Shown: positions 51,630 through 64,000 of the stretch, piece by piece
Numbering within the stretch: the first letter of the stretch is position 1
Layout: each line of letters starts with the position of its first letter
DNA from: Deltaproteobacteria bacterium
GTDB lineage: Bacteria > Desulfobacterota > Binatia > UBA9968 > JAJDTQ01
DNA length: 64,000 nt
NCBI GenBank assembly: GCA_028818755.1
Contig: JAPPNF010000170.1
Coordinates: forward strand, 53,352-117,351
Direction: 5' to 3'
Made by a program: the position numbers and the translations under genes
The notes under the pieces: generated by a model
Database searches by the model: none
What the model was told of the DNA's origin: nothing
Seen by the model: the letters and a program-made list of their open reading frames with translations, nothing else

Positions 51630-51744
51630 ACACGAGACTGAGACATTCTGGGGAACGAGTAGCAGAAGAGGCTCCAACGAGTTGTCTCTAGCTCATGCTG
51701 AGACACCACGGGGATTGCTCATGACTTCCCTGGAGTCACTGCTA

Positions 51745-52908
51745 ATGGCGACGACGCAACTCTACTACGCGACCAACCGGCACCACCGCGGAAGAGAGCG
51801 CTGGAAACCGACAGGATATGGTCCGGAACCGAGTGAGGACGGCACCGAGAACCTCCGGTTCGGGCTCGTAACCATCCGCTACGACCACGCAAAGGTCACC
51901 GGGTACCTGGAGGAAGACTGTGGATTCGGCGCCGGGAACGGCGAGAAGCTCTCGAGGTACTTCTACGACCAGAGGAACAAGGCAACCATCAATGCCTTCA
52001 CCGAAGAGCTCTCTAAGGAAGCCAACGAATCCGACCAGCCGCGGGGGAAGCTCGGTTCCAGCCGGGCGTTCTCCGAGTTGCAGGCAAAGATGAACAGTGG
52101 CGACCACGTCCTCATCTTCGTCCACGGTCCCAACATGAACTGGTGGCAGGCGGTTGCGTCCGCCCTCAGCCTGCAATGCATGCTGAACCGGCACCACGGA
52201 GGCGAGGCGTCCCCGGATCAGCCGCCGCGGGTTCACGTCGTCTTGTTCGCGTGGCCGTCAGGCGACCGGGAAGTCCCGCACTGGTCCTATTATTCCGACC
52301 ACACCGACGCCAAGGTGTGCGGTTATGCCCTCGGACGCGGCCTCCTCAAGCTTCGGGACTACCTCCTCCATGCACGGAACCTCGCGCGTCTGAATGGCGA
52401 GTTCCTTTCCGGACAGCCGATACACCTTCTCTGCCACTCCATGGGGAACTACGTCCTGCAGAACGCCCTGGAGCGAACCGCGAAGTTCTCCGTCGGCGGC
52501 AGGCTGCCGCGCATCTTTCAACAGATCTTCCTGTGCGCCGCGGATGTCGCTGCCGACGTGTTCCAGCCCGGAGAGCCCTTCCACAAGCTGTCGGAGATGG
52601 CGGAAGCCGTCACCATCTACCATAACAGGCGTGACCCCACATTGCCGTCTTCCGACTACGCAAAGGGCGCCGCCGACAGACTTGGGTGGGACGGTGCCGA
52701 ATGGCCCGCGTATCTGCCCGACCGTGTCCATCAGGTCGATTGCAGCCGGCTCGTGAGCGGTCTCATCGAGCACAGCTACTACCACTGCGGCGCGGTCAAC
52801 GACGACATTCGCCAAAGCATCGAGGGGATGCCGCAGGACTCGCGCGACCGCACCCGTGAACCCACCCGTCACGGCTGGCCGAATGTCTGGCGTCTCGTAG
52901 ACGGTTAG
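51745..52908 (+). CDS. DUF900 alpha/beta hydrolase, paralogue 1
   Basis: A 387-aa cytosolic alpha/beta hydrolase of the DUF900 family, function unknown. It begins MATTQLYYATNRHHRG. The oxyanion-like loop is LIFVHGPNMNWW, the nucleophile elbow is LLCHSMGNYVL (CHSMG), the acid is in YHNRRDPTLPSS and the catalytic His in PDRVHQVDCSRL. The start at 51745 aligns with the second paralogue; ATGs at 51682 and 51721 are in frame. Base composition is lower in G+C than the neighbours. About 240 nt of upstream space suggests its own promoter. Confidence 0.85.
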   Translation: MATTQLYYATNRHHRGRERWKPTGYGPEPSEDGTENLRFGLVTIRYDHAKVTGYLEEDCGFGAGNGEKLSRYFYDQRNKATINAFTEELSKEANESDQPRGKLGSSRAFSELQAKMNSGDHVLIFVHGPNMNWWQAVASALSLQCMLNRHHGGEASPDQPPRVHVVLFAWPSGDREVPHWSYYSDHTDAKVCGYALGRGLLKLRDYLLHARNLARLNGEFLSGQPIHLLCHSMGNYVLQNALERTAKFSVGGRLPRIFQQIFLCAADVAADVFQPGEPFHKLSEMAEAVTIYHNRRDPTLPSSDYAKGAADRLGWDGAEWPAYLPDRVHQVDCSRLVSGLIEHSYYHCGAVNDDIRQSIEGMPQDSRDRTREPTRHGWPNVWRLVDG

Positions 52909-56687: not shown

Positions 56688-56716
56688 TTGACAGACCGCT
56701 ACGCTTGTGGTTTATC
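56688..56716 (+). promoter_or_regulatory. Sigma-70 promoter of the hydrolase-kinase operon
   Basis: A perfect TTGACA (56688-56693), a 17-nt spacer and TTTATC (56711-56716). The predicted start of transcription, near 56723, falls inside the 30-bp palindrome that follows. Confidence 0.75.
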
Positions 56717-56720
56717 ACAA

Positions 56721-56750
56721 CCCTAACCGTACCCATGGGTACGGTTAGGG
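56721..56750. promoter_or_regulatory. 30-bp perfect palindrome, likely repressor operator
   Basis: The left half CCCTAACCGTACCCA is followed directly by its exact reverse complement. It contains the 9-4-9 motif AACCGTACC-N4-GGTACGGTT (56725-56746), which recurs before the protease gene and, weakly, before tetR. Its position on the start site fits a repressor operator. It could also form a 5' mRNA stem. Confidence 0.75.
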
Positions 56751-56786
56751 ACTCGAACAAAGGAGCGGTCACCGGACCTTCAAACC

Positions 56787-57968
56787 ATGGATGCAGCAGC
56801 CCAGCCTATGGACCGCATCCACGTCTACTATGCGACCAATCGGCGTCACCGCGGACTCGACCGCTGGCAGCCGACCGGATACGGCATCGAACCGAGCAAG
56901 GACGGCACCGAGAACCTGCGGTTCGGCATGGTGACGCTCCCCTGTGACGGCAGGAAGGTCGCCGAATGCCTCGAAGCGGACTGTGGATTCGGAACCGGCG
57001 ACGGCATTCGGCTCGAAAAATACCTCATTCAACAGCGGCGCATCGCCACCATCGAGGCGTTCCGCGAAGATCTTCGGAAGGAACAAAACGAGTCCACCCA
57101 ACCGCGAAAGAGCCTCGGCTCGACGCATGCCTTCTCTGAACTACGCGACAAGATGGTCGCCGGCGACCATGTCCTCATCTACGTCCACGGTTTCAACGTT
57201 TCTTGGTGGGAGGCCGTCGCATCCGCCGCCAGCCTGCAATGCATGCTGAACCGCCATTGCAGCCCCGACCCCGCAAACGATTCGACGCCGGTGCACGTCG
57301 TCCTGTTTACTTGGCCTTCCGACGGCCGCGCGATCCCCTACTGGTCCTACTTCTCCGACCGCAGCGACGCCAAGGTCTCCGGGTACGCTTTCGGCCGCGG
57401 TCTCCTCAAACTCAGAGACTATCTCATCGACACACGCCGCCTCCGTCGCCACAGGGGCGAACCGTCCTGCCGCCGGTCCGTATACCTGCTGTGCCATTCC
57501 ATGGGCAACTACGTCCTGTTGAACGCTCTGGAACGACTCACCAGCTACTCGATAGGGGGCCGCTTGCCCCGAATCTTCGAGCACATCTTCCTCTGCGCCG
57601 CCGATGTCGCTGCCGACGTGTTCCAGCCCGGAGAGCCCTTCCATCGACTTCCTCAAATGGCAAAGGGGGTCACCATCTACCACAACCGCGGCGACCTCAC
57701 CATGCCCGTTTCCGACTACACCAAGGGAAACACCGACCGTCTCGGTTGGGACGGCGCCGAATGGCCGGCCTATCTTCCCGACCGCGTGCATCAAGTCGAT
57801 TGTAGCCGTCTCGTCAGCGGGATTGTCGAGCACAGCTACTACAACTGCGGTGCGGTTAATGACGACATACGCCACTGCATCGACGGGCTGCCGCCCGACT
57901 CCCGGGACCGCACACGCGAGCCGGTACGGCATGGGTGGCCGAATGTGTGGAGGCTTGTAGACAACTAG
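56787..57968 (+). CDS. DUF900 alpha/beta hydrolase, paralogue 2
   Basis: A 393-aa paralogue of the 51745 gene, clearly similar along its full length. Motifs: YYATNRRHRG, VLIYVHGFNVSWWEAVAS, nucleophile elbow LLCHSMGNYVLLNAL, YHNRGDLTMPVSDY and DRVHQVDCSRLVSG. The ATG at 56808 aligns with the start of paralogue 1 and may be the true start. First gene of an operon with the 263-aa protein (73-nt gap) and the kinase. Controlled by a strong promoter and palindrome. Substrate unknown. Confidence 0.85.
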   Translation: MDAAAQPMDRIHVYYATNRRHRGLDRWQPTGYGIEPSKDGTENLRFGMVTLPCDGRKVAECLEADCGFGTGDGIRLEKYLIQQRRIATIEAFREDLRKEQNESTQPRKSLGSTHAFSELRDKMVAGDHVLIYVHGFNVSWWEAVASAASLQCMLNRHCSPDPANDSTPVHVVLFTWPSDGRAIPYWSYFSDRSDAKVSGYAFGRGLLKLRDYLIDTRRLRRHRGEPSCRRSVYLLCHSMGNYVLLNALERLTSYSIGGRLPRIFEHIFLCAADVAADVFQPGEPFHRLPQMAKGVTIYHNRGDLTMPVSDYTKGNTDRLGWDGAEWPAYLPDRVHQVDCSRLVSGIVEHSYYNCGAVNDDIRHCIDGLPPDSRDRTREPVRHGWPNVWRLVDN

Positions 57969-58041
57969 TCATCGAACGCCCAGCAACTGCGCTCCACAAA
58001 GTCGTGCGGGCACCGGCGGTGTCCCAAGGAGTCCAACTACC

Positions 58042-58833
58042 ATGGATTTCGAGCATTTGTTGTTTCTCCTGACGCGGTTCCTCCTCTGCCATAGGGCCAT
58101 CCGCATACAAGATACCGGGCCCGCCCCGAGCCTTTTCGGCCTAAACTTCAACTTCACCGATGCCAGAGTGATGCACATCGCCAATTTCACCATTAATGTC
58201 GACAATCATCGCCTCTCCTCGGAGCGTACACCGGTCCTGCCGTTGACCATCGAGACCCGCGACGGAGCGAAGTTTGATCTTCAGATTGCCGAGACAACAC
58301 CCCTTATCCAATCATCGCCATCACGTGAAGAAGTTCACGAAGAGCCCATGCATTACCACCTCGAACCCCATCTCGTCTTCGATCGTCCGGTTGAGGGACT
58401 CGACGAGTTCAAGGTCGCCGACCGCGCCAAAATACTGTTGTCTCGCAAGGCACCTACCATGGACTTCGTGCGCTGTGACGGCCTCGAAACAACACAACGG
58501 CTCTACCTCGACGCAGATCAACATTCGCGACCGATCGCTCTGAGGCTCGGGGGTCGCCGCATTCCGTTCAACCGCCGAACGCTCACCTGGGGCACGACCA
58601 AAAAGCAGCGTTGGACCTTCAAGCCCTTCTCTTTGAATCGACCTCAACGGATCGAAACGGATCCCCGCAATCCAACATTGCCCCAGACCCTGATTTCCGT
58701 TTTGGGGGATGTCTATGACGCCGCTTGGATGCTCACTCAACGCGACCTGCATCCCCCCGGCACGTTCCCGGAGCACTACCTGCTGCTTCACCAAAAGGAA
58801 AACGGAGACGACGATGCCCAGTCCGGACTATAG
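58042..58833 (+). CDS. Hypothetical protein between hydrolase and kinase
   Basis: A 263-aa protein I do not recognise. A hydrophobic N-terminal helix (MDFEHLLFLLTRFLLCHRAI) is followed by alternating strands typical of a beta-sandwich (FGLNFNFTDARVMHIANFTI, VLPLTIETRDGAKFDLQIAE) and a His-rich MHYHLEPH. No catalytic signature stands out. AAGGAG lies upstream of the ATG. Its end overlaps the kinase start by 20 nt, so the two are translationally coupled and it may be a regulatory or substrate-recognition partner of the kinase. Confidence 0.75.
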   Translation: MDFEHLLFLLTRFLLCHRAIRIQDTGPAPSLFGLNFNFTDARVMHIANFTINVDNHRLSSERTPVLPLTIETRDGAKFDLQIAETTPLIQSSPSREEVHEEPMHYHLEPHLVFDRPVEGLDEFKVADRAKILLSRKAPTMDFVRCDGLETTQRLYLDADQHSRPIALRLGGRRIPFNRRTLTWGTTKKQRWTFKPFSLNRPQRIETDPRNPTLPQTLISVLGDVYDAAWMLTQRDLHPPGTFPEHYLLLHQKENGDDDAQSGL

Positions 58834-61480
58834 CTTTGTCGCAACAACTTCCGATGCTGAGAACAGTGCGCCTATCGAGTACCGCTTTGTCGTGGATGAT
58901 GACGGCCAGCCTCGTAAACTGGGTGACGGTACATACGGCGTCGTATTCGAAGCCCAAGGTGCAGGCGATGAAAGGTGCGCGGTGAAGATTTTCTATCCTT
59001 TCGCCGAAAACTCCCCGTCAGCCGAACGCACCGCCGCCGAAATGAGGTCCGGCGTTACTGTGCTGGAAGCGCTCCGCATCACCAACGAGGAAAACTTGAT
59101 ATCGAATCTGGTCCTTTCAAAGGCATGGACGGAGCATTTTCTGAGCAGCCCCGCGTATGACAACCTCCAGGACGCGTTCGGTCAGCTCAACATCAAGGTG
59201 TCCAACAACGCGTTGGTGATGCCGCACTACGAGTGCACCTTAAAGGACGTCCTTGAGGCGGGAGCTCCCGCCAACCGCTTGGTGCGGGGCAACCCCTATC
59301 GCGACCACGGGACACCCGGTTATGACATCCTCCGAAGCCTCGCCGTAAGCGAGCGCGAGCGCCACGTGATCGGCATCGTCAGTCAGGTTGTCACCGGCCT
59401 GCGTGCCCTCCATGCCGCCAATCTCTTCCACCACGATATAAAGCCGTCGAACGTGATGTTGCGAAGCACTCAATTCCATGTGGATGTCGCTCTCGCAGAT
59501 TTCGGTTTTCTGAAGCCCACCGTCGACCGCGGAGACGGAGGCTATCCGGCACAATTTCCCTTCGGCACGCGCCACTACCGCTCACCGGAACAGAAGGACT
59601 ACTTCGACGTTTGTGATGTGACCGTATTTCCCAGCAGGGACAAGGAGCATCTGGTCTTGGAAACCCTGGACAGGAAGTTTCGCGACACGCTCATCGAGAC
59701 CGGGGACATCGCTCGCTTTTCCAAGGAACTCGACGGTCCCGGATACCAAGTACGCCACGTCGAGCACCTTCCCGAGCGGAAATCACTCATCTACCTGCGC
59801 CCGGAACGCGCTACGGAGGCGGAGGATGCACGAACGCAAGTGATGTTTTACAAGAAACCATCGCTCCGTACCGACGTATTCGGCGTAGGAGCCTTGCTCT
59901 TCGACCTCCTTACCACCGGGCGGTCCCCTGAGTGCTTCTACGACTACCTGCGTCCATTCGACCGCACCGACCAGAACCAGGTTCCCGCCGTGAGCCTGAT
60001 CGTGGAGCGATATCGCGCCACCGCCAGCGCCAACTCCACATCATCCGATCTCGCGCCGCTCTTCGAGCAGATTCGCGACAATCTCCAGGGGCGCTTTCCG
60101 TCCGCCGAGATAGTAACCGTACTCCTGCGATGCATGCTTTCTCAAGCACCCGATTCATACTATTGCACCGCCCTGGCGGATGACGGCGTCGTGGACCGCA
60201 AAAAACTCTTCTCCGCCATTCAAGACGATCTATCGCACCTCGGAGGCAGCAGTGAAGTTCCGATCATGGTCAATACCAACCCCATCTGGGCCGGCGAACG
60301 CCTGGAAAGCGAAACGAGCGAAGCGGCCACCACGTTCCTCCGTGACATGCATGATTCCTTGAAACTCACAGGCCGAAAACGCATCGTGAAAGCCGCCTTG
60401 AGGTGGCGCCAACTCGTTCAAATGATCGGTAGAATCAGGAACCACGGCAAGTTCTTTGCGGATCTCAGTCCCAGCAACCTTCGATTCGAGCAAAGCGGCA
60501 GCGAAGTTACCTCCGTGGTGGAAAGTTACAAGTCCGAACAAGACTACCTGCTCGCTGCCCAGACCGGGTCGGCGTGGCGCCTCGAAACCACTGGCGACAC
60601 GGACAACTACGTCCCGGTTTGCCGACGCTTCGACGTGCGATCCGTCGAGGTGATGATGCCGCCGACAAAATACGGTGGACACGATGTTATTTCGGCCAAG
60701 GCGCGCTACACGGAGTCACTTCCGGTCTGGCGCAACAACCGGCCGGGGGATCTGCTTAGAACCATTGACGGCCGTGGGCGCTCAAGGCTTTTTCGTATTG
60801 TGACCATCGACACCGTGGGCGCGTGGCAACAGATGATGATTCAAGAGGTGACTTTCGGCAACACCGACACCGACGCGCCAAACCAGCGAGATGAGCAGGA
60901 AGGCGGCGCTGAAGCGGTTGCTGAAGAGCATTCGGGAATGGAAAAGGTGATCGGCTCCTTGATTCATCGCCTTTTTCCCATGAACTATTATTTGTCCATA
61001 ATGGCAACGTATCTTCACCACCTCTTCTTCGTCGATGGATCGACCGATGACGGGACGATTCCCCAGGCGGTGTGGTCGGTGCTTCAATCGGGGGCTTCCG
61101 GGCGCGAACATAGCTTCGTGGAGAGGCATGGTGGCGCGTCATTGAAGCGGCTTTGGTCCCGAAACGCGGAAGTTCCGGCAAGCGATGTACGATCATTGGC
61201 GGCGGGGATTTATCTGGATCTAATTTCCGCGGCCGAGGCTCGGGAAGGAACCGGGGATCCCGACGAGAGAGCCCTGTACGTGCAACTCTCCAACCTCAAT
61301 GATATCCTGGATGATGCGGTCACCCGTCTGTGTGGCTTCCGCGACCCCGGCGAACTCAGGGCGCTCCGTATCTCCGATATAGAGAGTATGTCCGACGATG
61401 CGGATGAAGCCGACACCAGGACGTTCTCCGACTATCTCCAGGTGCACCTCGACCGTAGACGTGGGTTCTTCTCCAAGTGA
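58814..61480 (+). CDS. Large eukaryotic-like Ser/Thr protein kinase with atypical features
   Basis: An 888-aa soluble protein. The kinase domain (about 33-400) has the Gly loop LGDGTYGVVF (36-45), Lys58 in CAVK, the catalytic loop HHDIKPSN (206-213, a His in place of the usual Arg), ADFG (228-231) and GTRHYRSPE (251-259). About 80 extra residues lie between that segment and the conserved TDVFGVG (353-359). The C-terminal 500 residues match nothing I know; they include ADLSPSNLRF, which resembles a second degenerate catalytic loop. No transmembrane or PASTA region. It is third in the hydrolase operon. All key catalytic residues are present, so it is probably active. Confidence 0.85.
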   Translation: MPSPDYSFVATTSDAENSAPIEYRFVVDDDGQPRKLGDGTYGVVFEAQGAGDERCAVKIFYPFAENSPSAERTAAEMRSGVTVLEALRITNEENLISNLVLSKAWTEHFLSSPAYDNLQDAFGQLNIKVSNNALVMPHYECTLKDVLEAGAPANRLVRGNPYRDHGTPGYDILRSLAVSERERHVIGIVSQVVTGLRALHAANLFHHDIKPSNVMLRSTQFHVDVALADFGFLKPTVDRGDGGYPAQFPFGTRHYRSPEQKDYFDVCDVTVFPSRDKEHLVLETLDRKFRDTLIETGDIARFSKELDGPGYQVRHVEHLPERKSLIYLRPERATEAEDARTQVMFYKKPSLRTDVFGVGALLFDLLTTGRSPECFYDYLRPFDRTDQNQVPAVSLIVERYRATASANSTSSDLAPLFEQIRDNLQGRFPSAEIVTVLLRCMLSQAPDSYYCTALADDGVVDRKKLFSAIQDDLSHLGGSSEVPIMVNTNPIWAGERLESETSEAATTFLRDMHDSLKLTGRKRIVKAALRWRQLVQMIGRIRNHGKFFADLSPSNLRFEQSGSEVTSVVESYKSEQDYLLAAQTGSAWRLETTGDTDNYVPVCRRFDVRSVEVMMPPTKYGGHDVISAKARYTESLPVWRNNRPGDLLRTIDGRGRSRLFRIVTIDTVGAWQQMMIQEVTFGNTDTDAPNQRDEQEGGAEAVAEEHSGMEKVIGSLIHRLFPMNYYLSIMATYLHHLFFVDGSTDDGTIPQAVWSVLQSGASGREHSFVERHGGASLKRLWSRNAEVPASDVRSLAAGIYLDLISAAEAREGTGDPDERALYVQLSNLNDILDDAVTRLCGFRDPGELRALRISDIESMSDDADEADTRTFSDYLQVHLDRRRGFFSK

Positions 61481-61505
61481 GGCACCGAGAAGACGGACCG
61501 GCTCC

Positions 61506-62111
61506 CTAGACTCCGTAGAGCCGGACAAAAATCTCGGCTGCTCGCGTTGCCCTCCCCTCAACTTCGGCTTCACAAGGCGTGCCAACATAACCCAAAAGCC
61601 GCCGAATCTGGACATCGCCGAGCAATAGCCCAACGAACGTATCAACGGCCTGATCCGTGTCTTCGACATCGAGAAGGCCGCGCGCGTGACACTGCTCCAG
61701 ATACTGGACGAAGGCGCGGCGAATCGGCTCGCGACCCACTGTGGCAAGGCTGTGGGCCAGCGCAGGTCCGGAGCACGCTTCGGAGATTGCGGCGCGGTTG
61801 ATGGAGACAGCGTTATCGCAGAGGAGGTGGGTGGCCAGTGCCCGGCCGAAGTCGGTGAGCGCGGTTTCGACCGAGGTGTCGCTGTCCAGGTGGCCGTTCA
61901 GGGCTACGCGGACCCGGACGGCGTTTCGGCGGATGACGGCCTCGAAGAGGCCCAGCTTGTCTCCGAACGAGGTATACAAGGTTTCCTTGGATGCCGAAGC
62001 TCGTTTTGCTACCTCGAGCATGGTGGTGTCGCGATATCCGCGCTCGGACAGAACCTCGGCCGCGACGTCGAGGATATGACCCCGGCGCGGTGTGCGGGAT
62101 GACTTTTTCAC
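61506..62111 (-). CDS. TetR/AcrR-family repressor
   Basis: A 201-aa one-component regulator. The N-terminal HTH is typical: RRGHILDVAAEVLSERGYRDTTMLEVAKRASASKETLYTSFGDKLGLFEAVI. The C-terminal ligand and dimer domain resembles the AefR-like group. It starts with GTG at 62111, with GGAGG 8 nt upstream. It is convergent with the kinase gene. The shared 9-4-9 palindrome in front of the hydrolase operon, the protease gene and, weakly, its own gene makes it the natural candidate regulator. The effector is unknown. Confidence 0.92.
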   Translation of the reverse strand: MKKSSRTPRRGHILDVAAEVLSERGYRDTTMLEVAKRASASKETLYTSFGDKLGLFEAVIRRNAVRVRVALNGHLDSDTSVETALTDFGRALATHLLCDNAVSINRAAISEACSGPALAHSLATVGREPIRRAFVQYLEQCHARGLLDVEDTDQAVDTFVGLLLGDVQIRRLLGYVGTPCEAEVEGRATRAAEIFVRLYGV

Positions 62112-62182
62112 TCACGCTTCCCTCCGGCAACGCCTAGATCCTCCCGGACCAACTCTAGCAGAACCCGTACGTGTGTCAATAT

Positions 62183-62204
62183 TCCCGTACTCTCAGGTAC
62201 TCTG
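62183..62204. promoter_or_regulatory. Weak tetR operator candidate
   Basis: TCCCGTACT-CTCA-GGTACTCTG has the same 9-4-9 spacing as the strong palindrome and matches each half at about six of nine positions. It lies about 75 nt upstream of tetR, where an autoregulatory site is expected. Confidence 0.4.
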
Positions 62205-62460
62205 GAAGGCGACCCCCACCGCCAGGCTGGTCACACGCCCCGCGTTCATCACCATGACCCGGTCCGACAACGCGAGGATCTCGTCCAGGTCGGCGGAGAC
62301 GAGCAGGATGGCGCAGCCTTGCCGCCTGAGCGAGAGGATCCGGGCGTGGATGAACTCGATGTCCAGCATGAAATGCTGATGGACCATGCCGATGCCGTAG
62401 GTGATGGCGTCGGCGGGCGCGGCGATGGCCGAGGGCCGGCCGTCGATCTCGATCCAGTCG
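62193..62460 (-). pseudogene. Relic of an ABC sugar/nucleoside importer ATPase
   Basis: In one frame: [20 protein letters not shown] then [11 protein letters not shown] joined directly to [14 protein letters not shown] then [20 protein letters not shown]. The Q-loop region and the H-loop region of an RbsA/NupO-like ATPase are fused, and Walker A, the signature motif and Walker B are missing. This is the product of an internal deletion. Confidence 0.75.
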
Positions 62461-62523
62461 TCCTTCGATCAGTTTCGAAAGGTACCTGCGCGTACGCATC
62501 GATCCCGGTACTCTCTTCGCCAT
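62455..62523 (-). pseudogene. Possible N-terminal relic of an IS256-type transposase
   Basis: After GGAGG and ATG the frame reads [20 protein letters not shown] then GRLD, like the first residues of some IS256-family transposases, and then shifts into the ABC relic. The family link is from memory and tentative. It would mark the deletion junction. Confidence 0.35.
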
Positions 62524-62660
62524 GGGCTGCCTCCTTGTAGCGCCAGCCTCTACCGGCGCCGGTTGGTGAATCCTCGACCAGGATGCACTCCCCTACCAAT
62601 TTCCAGCAAATTCAGGACTTCACCCTAACGCGATTTCCGCACTTGACTGGGCGAGGCCAC

Positions 62661-62696
62661 TTGGTGTACGCACAAGTCGTACCGTATGGTACGGTT
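62661..62696 (+). promoter_or_regulatory. Protease promoter with shared operator
   Basis: TTGGTG (62661-62666), an 18-nt spacer and TATGGT (62685-62690) form a plausible promoter. Across its -10 lies AGTCGTACC-GTAT-GGTACGGTT (62675-62696). The right half is identical to that of the 56721-56750 palindrome and the left half matches seven of nine bases. The space 62524-62660 shows nothing else. Confidence 0.6.
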
Positions 62697-62730: not shown

Positions 62731-63843
62731 GTGGAACCATTCACCAGGACAACAAGGCTCGGCCTGGTATCTGTTTCGTTGTTCGTATTTGTCGCGCTAA
62801 GCCCTGCGTCCCCGTTACGGGCGGGTATCGTCGGCCTGAGCGATGCTCATCTGGCCGTGTGGAGACTACACAACGACGAACCAATACAGAACCCGAAATT
62901 TGCAAAATATGAGGTGTCAACGGTTTTTGCCGTGAGCCCTAGGCATTTCGTGGGCACCGCCCACGGTTTCCGGGCCTTGAGCGTCGACAGGGCGGTTCCC
63001 ATACCGGGGCTCGTGGTTACTCGGGGTCAAGGTTCTACGGCCGTCATTCTACGCATCGATAGGGTATTGCGTGTATCGGAGATTCATGACTTGGCGTTGT
63101 TCACAACCACGAAAAGGGTCAAACACTGGCTGAGATTGGCCCCTAGTTCACAGAGGCTCGCGCACCTCACCGCAATCGGCTACCCCGGAGGGAGCAAACA
63201 AAGAACAATGCGACCAGTCGGACGGGCAAGCAGGGACCGCTTTGGTTGGGAATTCCAGTTGCCGGTCGATGTGGCCGAGCTCAAGTCAGGCAGCGGGTCT
63301 CCTGTATTGGATGCTCGCGGGCGGGTAGTCGGCGTATTTTTTCGAGCCTTTTCCAATATGGCTACAGCACTATCCGTAGAGAGTCTCAGGCCGTTCGGAT
63401 GGACCCGAGAGGACACGAGATGGGTCTCGTGCGGCGACAGATCCTTCAGACGTTGTCACGAAGCGGCGTTGGAAAATGTCCGGGAACGCGCGAGGAAAAA
63501 GGACCCGATCGCCCAGGGCAGGCAATGGCTACTATACACTCAAGGTGTGATAAACGGAAACCGCGCGTTCCTCGACTCCCTGAAGGAAGCAGCGGAGCAG
63601 AATGTCCGTTTCGCTCAACTCCAACTTGCTTTTGCGTATCACGAGGGAGATTTCGTCGCACCAAGCCGAAGCAAACGTGATCTCTGGTATCGACGGGCCA
63701 CGCGGGAGGGCAGTCCTCTCGCCGAATACAACCTGGCGCTCACTATCCGGCGGTCCGATCCAACCCGTGCCCGGGCGATGCTGCAGCGTCTCGCCGAGCG
63801 AGGTCTCGTTCTTGCAAGGGAGCGCTTGGAGGAATCGCGATAG
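62731..63843 (+). CDS. Secreted trypsin-like serine protease with Sel1-like repeats
   Basis: A 370-aa protein with a Sec signal peptide (about residues 1-31, hydrophobic LGLVSVSLFVFVALSP, ending LRAG). A chymotrypsin-fold protease follows, with the catalytic triad visible as FVGTAHGF (His), EIHDLALF (Asp) and KSGSGSPVLD (Ser). The C-terminal third has Sel1-like helical repeats (FAQLQLAFAYHEGDFV, LWYRRATREGSPLAEYNLAL). The GTG at 62731 is the start, with AAGGAAG upstream. The shared palindrome links it to the TetR regulon. Target unknown. Confidence 0.82.
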   Translation: MEPFTRTTRLGLVSVSLFVFVALSPASPLRAGIVGLSDAHLAVWRLHNDEPIQNPKFAKYEVSTVFAVSPRHFVGTAHGFRALSVDRAVPIPGLVVTRGQGSTAVILRIDRVLRVSEIHDLALFTTTKRVKHWLRLAPSSQRLAHLTAIGYPGGSKQRTMRPVGRASRDRFGWEFQLPVDVAELKSGSGSPVLDARGRVVGVFFRAFSNMATALSVESLRPFGWTREDTRWVSCGDRSFRRCHEAALENVRERARKKDPIAQGRQWLLYTQGVINGNRAFLDSLKEAAEQNVRFAQLQLAFAYHEGDFVAPSRSKRDLWYRRATREGSPLAEYNLALTIRRSDPTRARAMLQRLAERGLVLARERLEESR

Positions 63844-63914
63844 AAGCGTGAGAGGCTACCGTGCACCACCACGTGGAATACGGCAAAGGGACTTCATCCG
63901 CAAGAAGGACGTCC

Positions 63915-64000
63915 ATGGGCTCGTATGACAGCATATCCCTCTGGAAGCACACCTCCAGGACAATCCTCATCATAATTTGCACAGCGTGGACGATCGCCCA
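63915..64000 (+). CDS. Partial gene, N-terminus only
   Basis: AAGGA lies 6 nt before an ATG. The 28 visible residues begin MGSYDSISLWKHTSRT and then turn hydrophobic (ILIIICTAWTIA), like a signal peptide or first membrane helix. The gene is cut by the window end and cannot be identified. Confidence 0.4.
   Translation, partial: MGSYDSISLWKHTSRTILIIICTAWTIA

What the first reader, a model, noticed from the sequence alone, without database searches (positions are those of the whole stretch)
56721..62696. A small regulon marked by a shared 9-4-9 palindrome and a TetR repressor
A perfect 30-bp palindrome sits on the predicted start site of the hydrolase-263 aa-kinase operon. Its core AACCGTACC-N4-GGTACGGTT recurs across the -10 of the protease gene (62675-62696) and weakly before tetR (62183-62204). 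The regulator and all sites lie within 6 kb. This joins a DUF900 hydrolase, an unknown protein, a large Ser/Thr kinase and a secreted protease under one probable switch. I know of no such described set.
Basis: partly seen in the sequence, partly recalled or inferred. Interest (0 to 1): 0.78.

Follow-up and report, generated by a model that had tools for sequence, protein, structure and literature searches.

The report
TetR switch with conserved dispersed operators
An uncultured bacterium has a repressor gene whose DNA landing site, conserved in distant bacteria, sits on the start of several unrelated operons; it looks like a real but fairly ordinary gene switch whose controlled genes differ strikingly between close relatives.

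Summary
A perfect 30-bp palindrome (56721-56750) lies on the predicted start of the hydrolase operon. Its core recurs at the protease promoter (62675-62696, 2 mismatches) and, degenerate, before tetR (62183-62204).

The guess that this TetR binds it is now strongly supported. In 22 of 22 TetR homologue loci outside the genus (47-60% identity), two tandem copies lie upstream of tetR. In those genomes 14 of 15 perfect core matches lie upstream of tetR. Within the genus the operator stands before the hydrolase in 4 of 4 orthologues and, degenerate, before tetR1 in 5 of 5.

"A small regulon within 6 kb" is not right. TTGACA-plus-operator promoters also precede three other genes or operons in this genome, and other genes in sister species: tyrosinase, a MotA/ExbB set, a DUF4189 protein. 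The cargo is not conserved: the 263-aa protein and the kinase were found in none of 57 related genomes.

Best reading: a TetR repressor, possibly sensing an aromatic compound, with a dispersed regulon of fast turnover. Binding, repression and ligand are untested.

The parts
56688..56716 (+). promoter of the hydrolase operon: TTGACA, 17 nt, TTTATC
   Evidence: Sequence; TTGACA conserved in 4 of 4 orthologous promoters; the -10 is inferred
56721..56750 (.). perfect 30-bp palindrome; operator core 56725-56746 over the predicted start site
   Evidence: half-sites conserved with variable N4 in G000, G004, G005, G008
56787..57968 (+). DUF900 alpha/beta hydrolase, 393 aa
   Evidence: Pfam PF05990 E 1e-23; orthologues 88-94% in G004, G005, G008
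58042..58833 (+). 263-aa protein without Pfam or NCBIfam match, found in no other of 58 genomes
   Evidence: single-sequence model uninformative, pLDDT 30.6
58814..61480 (+). 888-aa protein with Ser/Thr protein kinase core, overlaps the 263-aa gene by 20 nt
   Evidence: Pkinase PF00069 E 2.4e-16; no match in 57 related genomes at E<=1e-10 nor in 296 others drawn from the phylum at E<=1e-15
61506..62111 (-). TetR-family regulator (TetR1), TetR_N + TetR_C_7, 201 aa
   Evidence: orthologues 84-87% in G004, G005, G008
62152..62179 (-). tetR promoter: TTGACA, 16 nt, TAGAGT
   Evidence: TATTGACACAC in 5 of 5 tetR1 upstream regions, G005 with two extra bases behind it
62183..62204 (.). degenerate operator just upstream of the tetR -35 (GTACTCTCAGGTAC at 62187-62200)
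   Evidence: GTACY-N4-AGTACG (read towards tetR) in 5 of 5 tetR1 upstream regions
62643..62670 (+). protease promoter: TTGACT, 16 nt, TGTACG
   Evidence: relatives have TATACG/TATACA at about this place; the -10 is inferred
62675..62696 (.). operator of the protease gene, just downstream of the -10-like hexamer
   Evidence: a like site in 3 of 3 aligned protease promoters, the one of the paralogue with a changed right half
62731..63843 (+). trypsin-like protease, probably secreted, 370 aa
   Evidence: Trypsin_2 PF13365 E 3.7e-8; Sel1 0.047, below cut-off; signal peptide judged by eye

Best explanation
The palindrome is the operator of the TetR-family protein at 61506-62111. As in other TetR repressors, a dimer (possibly two, since the site is 22-30 bp long) binds it. 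At the hydrolase operon and the protease it covers the start site and blocks RNA polymerase; at tetR it sits just upstream of the -35 and tunes the regulator's own level. A small molecule releases it. By fold similarity to FrrA, MexL and NalC the ligand may be an aromatic or phenolic compound. The regulon is larger than the window: the same promoter-plus-operator module stands before three other genes or operons in this genome, and before other, lineage-specific genes in sister species. SHOWN by computation: operator identity by footprinting across species, conservation at the three window promoters, dispersal, cargo turnover. INFERRED: physical binding, repression rather than activation, ligand class, co-transcription of the three-gene operon.
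For: 22 of 22 homologue loci outside the genus carry two tandem copies within 200 bp upstream of tetR: 45 sites in 4,400 bp against 13 in the other 304,608 bp; these loci were found by protein sequence, not by the motif. In their genomes 14 of 15 perfect core matches and 20 of 21 composite matches are at tetR. Residues ASKETLY of the recognition helix are invariant in 21 aligned members. In the genus: operator kept with changing N4 in 4 of 4 hydrolase promoters, 5 of 5 tetR1 (degenerate), 3 of 3 protease promoters. TTGAC-N(12-40)-GTACY-N4-RGTAC: 16 matches in six genomes judged to have the system, 2 in 13 others (binomial 1.2e-7 by length, 5e-6 if G006 is moved). The genus members without an intact TetR1 (G001 none, G003 a fragment, G007 only a 58% homologue) have no composite match. 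TetR fold model pLDDT 92.4; nearest solved structures 3bhq, MexL 8wrf, 3c2b, FrrA 6g8h/6g8g/6g87, NalC 8ke8.
Against: No binding or expression data. This genome's TetR1 reads LYTSF where all 30 correctly read homologues have LYxWF, so its affinity may be changed; paralogue TetR2 keeps the consensus. TetR3 proteins share the recognition helix, yet no operator was found before their genes. With one mismatch allowed the core is rarer than its reversed control (36 against 123 in 19 genomes, perfect ones included), and composite totals hardly exceed controls (18 against 13; 21 against 20): the argument rests on location, not raw number. One of the 16 genus matches (G005:C210) lies inside an open frame that looks coding. 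G006 is counted as having the system although no tetR was found; its contig ends next to the place. In G002 only a 36-residue start of tetR1 at a contig end supports it. Several of the 16 matches are orthologous promoters, so they are not independent.
Confidence: 0.78

Rival explanations
1. The operators are real, but in this genome they are read mainly by the paralogue TetR2 (G000:C109:122857, 5.5 kb beyond the window), TetR1 being altered in its recognition helix.
For: TetR2 is 72% identical with consensus LYAWF; TetR1 has LYTSF. TetR2 sits beside a protease paralogue with its own variant site AGGCGTACCCATGCGTACGCCC.
Against: G004, G005 and G008 have a TetR1 with the consensus helix and the same operators, and one search lists no TetR2-like copy in them; TetR1 here has kept its open frame. 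Both may act.
Confidence: 0.15
2. One reading: a small local regulon of three promoters within 6 kb; the other genomic sites are chance.
For: Of the three places in the genome with at most 2 mismatches to the 22-mer, two are here. Distant sites have weaker half-sites.
Against: Three distant sites have TTGACA at promoter spacing and genes after them; sister genomes show the same at other operons, some with 0-mismatch cores. In the 13 genomes without the system such composites total 2.
Confidence: 0.15
3. The protein activates rather than represses (as FasR, a TetR-like activator by the abstract of PMC7382501, does).
For: At tetR the site is upstream of the -35, where activators often bind.
Against: At the hydrolase and protease promoters the site covers the likely start, where a bound protein blocks polymerase; in many homologues the tandem sites interleave with TTGACA boxes of both directions.
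Confidence: 0.06
4. The palindrome is not an operator but another element (recombination or replication site, transcript hairpin).
For: A perfect 30-bp palindrome in the 5' untranslated region could also form a hairpin.
Against: Its place upstream of tetR homologues and its half-site conservation with free N4.
Confidence: 0.03

Closest known systems
FrrA of Bradyrhizobium (PDB 6g87, 6g8g, 6g8h)
   Same: TetR family, same fold; sequence match E 2e-12 over residues 12-180, named FrrA; autoregulation with paired palindromes is recalled, not checked
   Different: 24-25% identity in the fold alignment; stands beside the pump genes FreCAB and may control them (passages of PMC4070704), whereas no pump adjoins this tetR; the operator paper (PMC3347051) is not held, so operators could not be compared
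NalC and MexL of Pseudomonas aeruginosa (8ke8, 8wrf)
   Same: TetR fold, among the nearest solved relatives
   Different: 26-27% identity; NalC acts on efflux through ArmR and responds to chlorinated phenols (passages of PMC6018408); MexL as efflux regulator is recalled
Pfam TetR_C_7 (AefR-like) repressors
   Same: PF14246 E 5e-22 and TetR_N PF00440 E 3.7e-15
   Different: No characterised member with this operator turned up in the paper searches made
SAV576/SAV577 of Streptomyces avermitilis
   Same: Adjacent similar TetR genes; operator CCRTACRVYGTATGS shares CCGTAC (passages of PMC4051647)
   Different: 15-bp site with other spacing; other gene set

Membership tests
TetR-family one-component regulator | N-terminal TetR helix-turn-helix | tested here: met
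   PF00440 E 3.7e-15, above cut-off
TetR-family one-component regulator | all-helical TetR fold with ligand-binding C-terminal domain | tested here: met
   PF14246 E 5e-22; model pLDDT 92.4; the first 12 PDB rows are TetR proteins, TM 0.65-0.84
TetR-family one-component regulator | palindromic operator at its own promoter | tested here: met
   Degenerate site in 5 of 5 tetR1 genes of the genus and tandem sites in 22 of 22 other loci; binding itself not tested
TetR-family one-component regulator | ligand-released repression | not testable with these tools
   needs protein and DNA
FrrA/MexL/NalC-type efflux repressor | efflux pump genes next to the regulator | tested here: not met
   Immediate neighbours are the hydrolase-kinase operon and the protease
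Anti-phage kinase systems (PD-T4-6, MADS mad6) | match to the defence protein beyond the kinase core | tested here: not met
   The 25 PADLOC rows shown (of 33) cover residues 172-262 of 888, mad6 34-260

The most novel reading that the evidence does not exclude
In this genus of uncultured Candidatus Binatia relatives a TetR switch, strictly local in distant homologues, has become a portable promoter-plus-operator module under which lineage-specific, compositionally atypical envelope and secreted cargo (proteases, tyrosinase, hydrolases, kinase, MotA/ExbB complex) is captured and exchanged, so that one chemical signal from host or community opens a different arsenal in each species.
Probability: 0.3. 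Interest if true: 0.62.

Novelty: new member of a known kind. Interest (0 to 1): 0.42.

Why it matters
It gives a TetR subfamily, for which the searches made here found no described operator, a precise, conserved DNA target, which makes its regulon predictable in uncultured bacteria. It also offers a clean case of regulon turnover: operator and regulator conserved, cargo replaced between sister species.

Tried and rejected
Raw motif counts as proof: rejected, since reversed controls are as frequent or more frequent; location was used instead. Matches set aside as probable chance: C36:2905 and G005:C210, both in open frames; C20:114562, C50, C114, C123 and C109:52977, the two G033 matches and the one off-tetR match each were not examined. 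Defence-system reading of the kinase: only the kinase core matches. Fold of the 263-aa protein: pLDDT 30.6, meaningless, not searched further. Operator before TetR3 genes: none at the threshold used. Literature: ten paper searches, eight on the regulator or motif, one on regulon acquisition (73), one on the organism (49); none showed this operator with a TetR, but most subscription papers are not held. The recalled lead that FrrA and EmrR have paired palindromes could not be checked. On recheck I found that the phylum sample lists no member of the genus, so I searched the kinase again in 58 relatives; the result was the same.

Full report
OBSERVATION. The palindrome exists as stated: 56721-56750, 15 of 15 pairs. 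The core AACCGTACC-N4-GGTACGGTT matches at 56725-56746 (0 mismatches) and 62675-62696 (2), plus an unrelated 3-mismatch place at 882; 0.02 matches are expected. The tetR site at 62183-62204 has 6 mismatches. GTAC-N6-GTAC occurs only four times in the window: at these three sites and at 62482. In the whole genome (4.94 Mb) the 22-mer occurs at 9 places with up to 3 mismatches against 4 for the reversed pattern, and at 3 places with up to 2.

PROMOTERS. The hydrolase operon has TTGACA (56688), 17 nt, TTTATC, then the palindrome from 56721, over the likely start. The protease has TTGACT (62643), 16 nt, TGTACG, then the operator from 62675. On the minus strand tetR has TTGACA (62179) and TAGAGT, with the operator just upstream of the -35. 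The hydrolase and 263-aa genes lie 73 nt apart, the 263-aa and kinase genes overlap by 20 nt, and no terminator-like site was called between them on the plus strand. The -10 hexamers are my reading; no transcript data exist.

GENES. TetR: TetR_N and TetR_C_7. Hydrolase: DUF900. Kinase: a Pkinase core. Protease: Trypsin_2 with a sub-threshold Sel1 match. The 263-aa protein has no family. PADLOC rows shown for the 888-aa protein (25 of 33) cover essentially the kinase core.

OPERATOR IDENTITY. TetR homologues were collected from titled genome records by peptide pattern, blind to the motif (26 loci; four were left out of this count as belonging to the genus: L057, L058, L059, L061). All 22 others have two tandem copies within 200 bp upstream of tetR, 27-29 bp apart, in 16 of 22 at 83-86 and 55-58 bp before the match start. 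That makes 45 sites in 4,400 bp against 13 in the remaining 304,608 bp (up to 2 mismatches in the 12-base core). By record title 20 loci are alphaproteobacterial, one Anaerolineae and one Rubrobacteraceae; the Anaerolineae contig (L081) shares gene order with an alphaproteobacterial one (L077) and may be misbinned. In their 22 genomes, 14 of 15 perfect CCGTACYNNNNRGTACGG matches (reversed control 8) and 20 of 21 TTGAC-N(12-40)-GTACYNNNNRGTAC matches (reversed control 20) lie at tetR; I checked these places by coordinate arithmetic. In 15 of the 22 loci a protein like the 132-aa one of L074 is encoded divergently, its match starting 103-209 bp before the tetR match; it looks like a small membrane protein and has no Pfam or NCBIfam match. 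At L063 an anthrone-oxygenase-like match was seen further upstream. Residues ASKETLY of the recognition helix are invariant in 21 aligned members.

WITHIN THE GENUS. Contigs of G005 and G008 equal in length and tetR position JAJDXX010000240.1 ('Candidatus Binatia bacterium') and JAPOQB010000450.1 ('Deltaproteobacteria bacterium'), so the window is probably from a Candidatus Binatia relative (inference). The operator stands before the hydrolase in 4 of 4 genomes with the orthologue (G000, G004, G005, G008), with half-sites kept and N4 free. A degenerate GTACY-N4-AGTACG stands before tetR1 in 5 of 5; in G002 only the start of tetR1 is on the contig. A site stands before the protease in 3 of 3 aligned cases: two paralogues here and G006. 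All 8 perfect cores in 19 genomes lie in G000, G002, G004, G005, G006 and G008, on the contig of tetR1 or, in G006, of its conserved neighbourhood; none lies in G001, G003, G007 or the ten outgroup genomes. With one mismatch allowed, some genomes without the system have as many matches as those with it, and the total is below the reversed control (36 against 123), so only perfect or promoter-anchored matches were trusted.

DISPERSAL. The promoter-anchored pattern gives 18 matches in 19 genomes (reversed control 13): G000 5, G005 4, G008 3, G006 2, G002 1, G004 1, and 2 in G033; none in the other 12. One of the 16 (G005:C210) lies inside an open frame that looks coding. In G000 the three sites outside the window precede a 413-aa membrane-like protein (C35:4634, gene 253 nt on), a 423+277-aa pair (C20:83587) and a PhoD-like phosphatase, 202-aa and GMC-oxidoreductase set (C20:55843; the listed frame runs over the site, so its true start must lie further in). 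In relatives they precede a tyrosinase (G002), a six-gene set of mostly secreted-looking proteins (G005), a six-gene set with a MotA/ExbB protein (G008), an HTH-cupin gene about 290 nt on (G008:C905), a DUF4189 protein (G006), and the hydrolase followed by a papain-like protease (G005) or by a peptidoglycan-binding protein among others (G004). 'Secreted-looking' and 'membrane-like' are judged by eye.

CARGO TURNOVER. Between hydrolase and tetR the four genomes differ: 263-aa plus kinase here, two other genes in G005, two or three in G004, none in G008. The 263-aa protein is in 1 of 58 genomes and the kinase in 1 of 58 at E<=1e-10 and 1 of 297 of the phylum at E<=1e-15, each time only this genome. 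The predicted cargo has lower GC at third positions (median 0.68, 34 genes) than other genes of the same loci (0.86, 88 genes; p 1e-13); the cargo list is mine and the gene caller simple. Proteases of the same family in G007 (best 37%) stand in a genome without TetR1 and without any composite match.

MECHANISM. An operator over the start implies block of initiation; the site upstream of the -35 at tetR implies autoregulation. The fold model (pLDDT 92.4) is closest to 3bhq, MexL, 3c2b, FrrA and NalC. FrrA is solved with genistein and naringenin (titles) and NalC responds to chlorinated phenols (passages of PMC6018408). Hence the guess of an aromatic ligand; it is only a guess.

PAPERS. Passages only: PMC4051647, PMC11596240, PMC7382501, PMC6821364, PMC6018408, PMC12421961, PMC9999580, PMC4070704. 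Others were seen as search listings. The statement that the operator seems undescribed rests, in a library without most subscription journals. Habitat: several isolate codes recall sponge microbiomes to me; this was not checked.

VERDICT. The set it proposed is not a conserved functional unit, and the regulon reaches beyond the window. As a kind it is a TetR repressor regulon; the interest lies in the conserved operator with exchanged cargo.

Noticed in passing
window 62232-62504: Remnant of an ABC-transporter ATPase gene between tetR and the protease: 130 bp 98% and 92 bp 84% identical to an intact copy downstream (L045:12122-13648); the tetR1-protease block is a diverged duplicate of tetR2-protease2 (tetR DNA 75%, protease DNA 79%).
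   Followed up: partly
window 51682-52908: Paralogue of the DUF900 hydrolase (70% identical) without an operator found here, while G005 and G006 have TTGACA plus operator in the corresponding upstream interval.
   Followed up: partly
window 62478-62499: Fourth GTAC-N6-GTAC in the window (AAAGGTACCTGCGCGTACGCAT), in the remnant region; no promoter assigned.
   Followed up: no
window 61506-62111, residues 45-49 of the protein: Recognition-helix end reads LYTSF where 30 homologues have LYxWF.
   Followed up: no
window 63861-64000 and on (L045:9212-9829): A DUF4189 gene follows the protease; another DUF4189 protein stands directly behind an operator in G006.
   Followed up: no
L074:7498-7896 and equivalents: A small protein of about 132 aa, membrane-like by eye, without Pfam family, is divergent from tetR in 15 of 22 homologue loci.
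   Followed up: partly
L049:6820-13029: Six-gene set behind an operator in G008 with a MotA/ExbB protein; no NCBIfam match for the two proteins tested.
   Followed up: no
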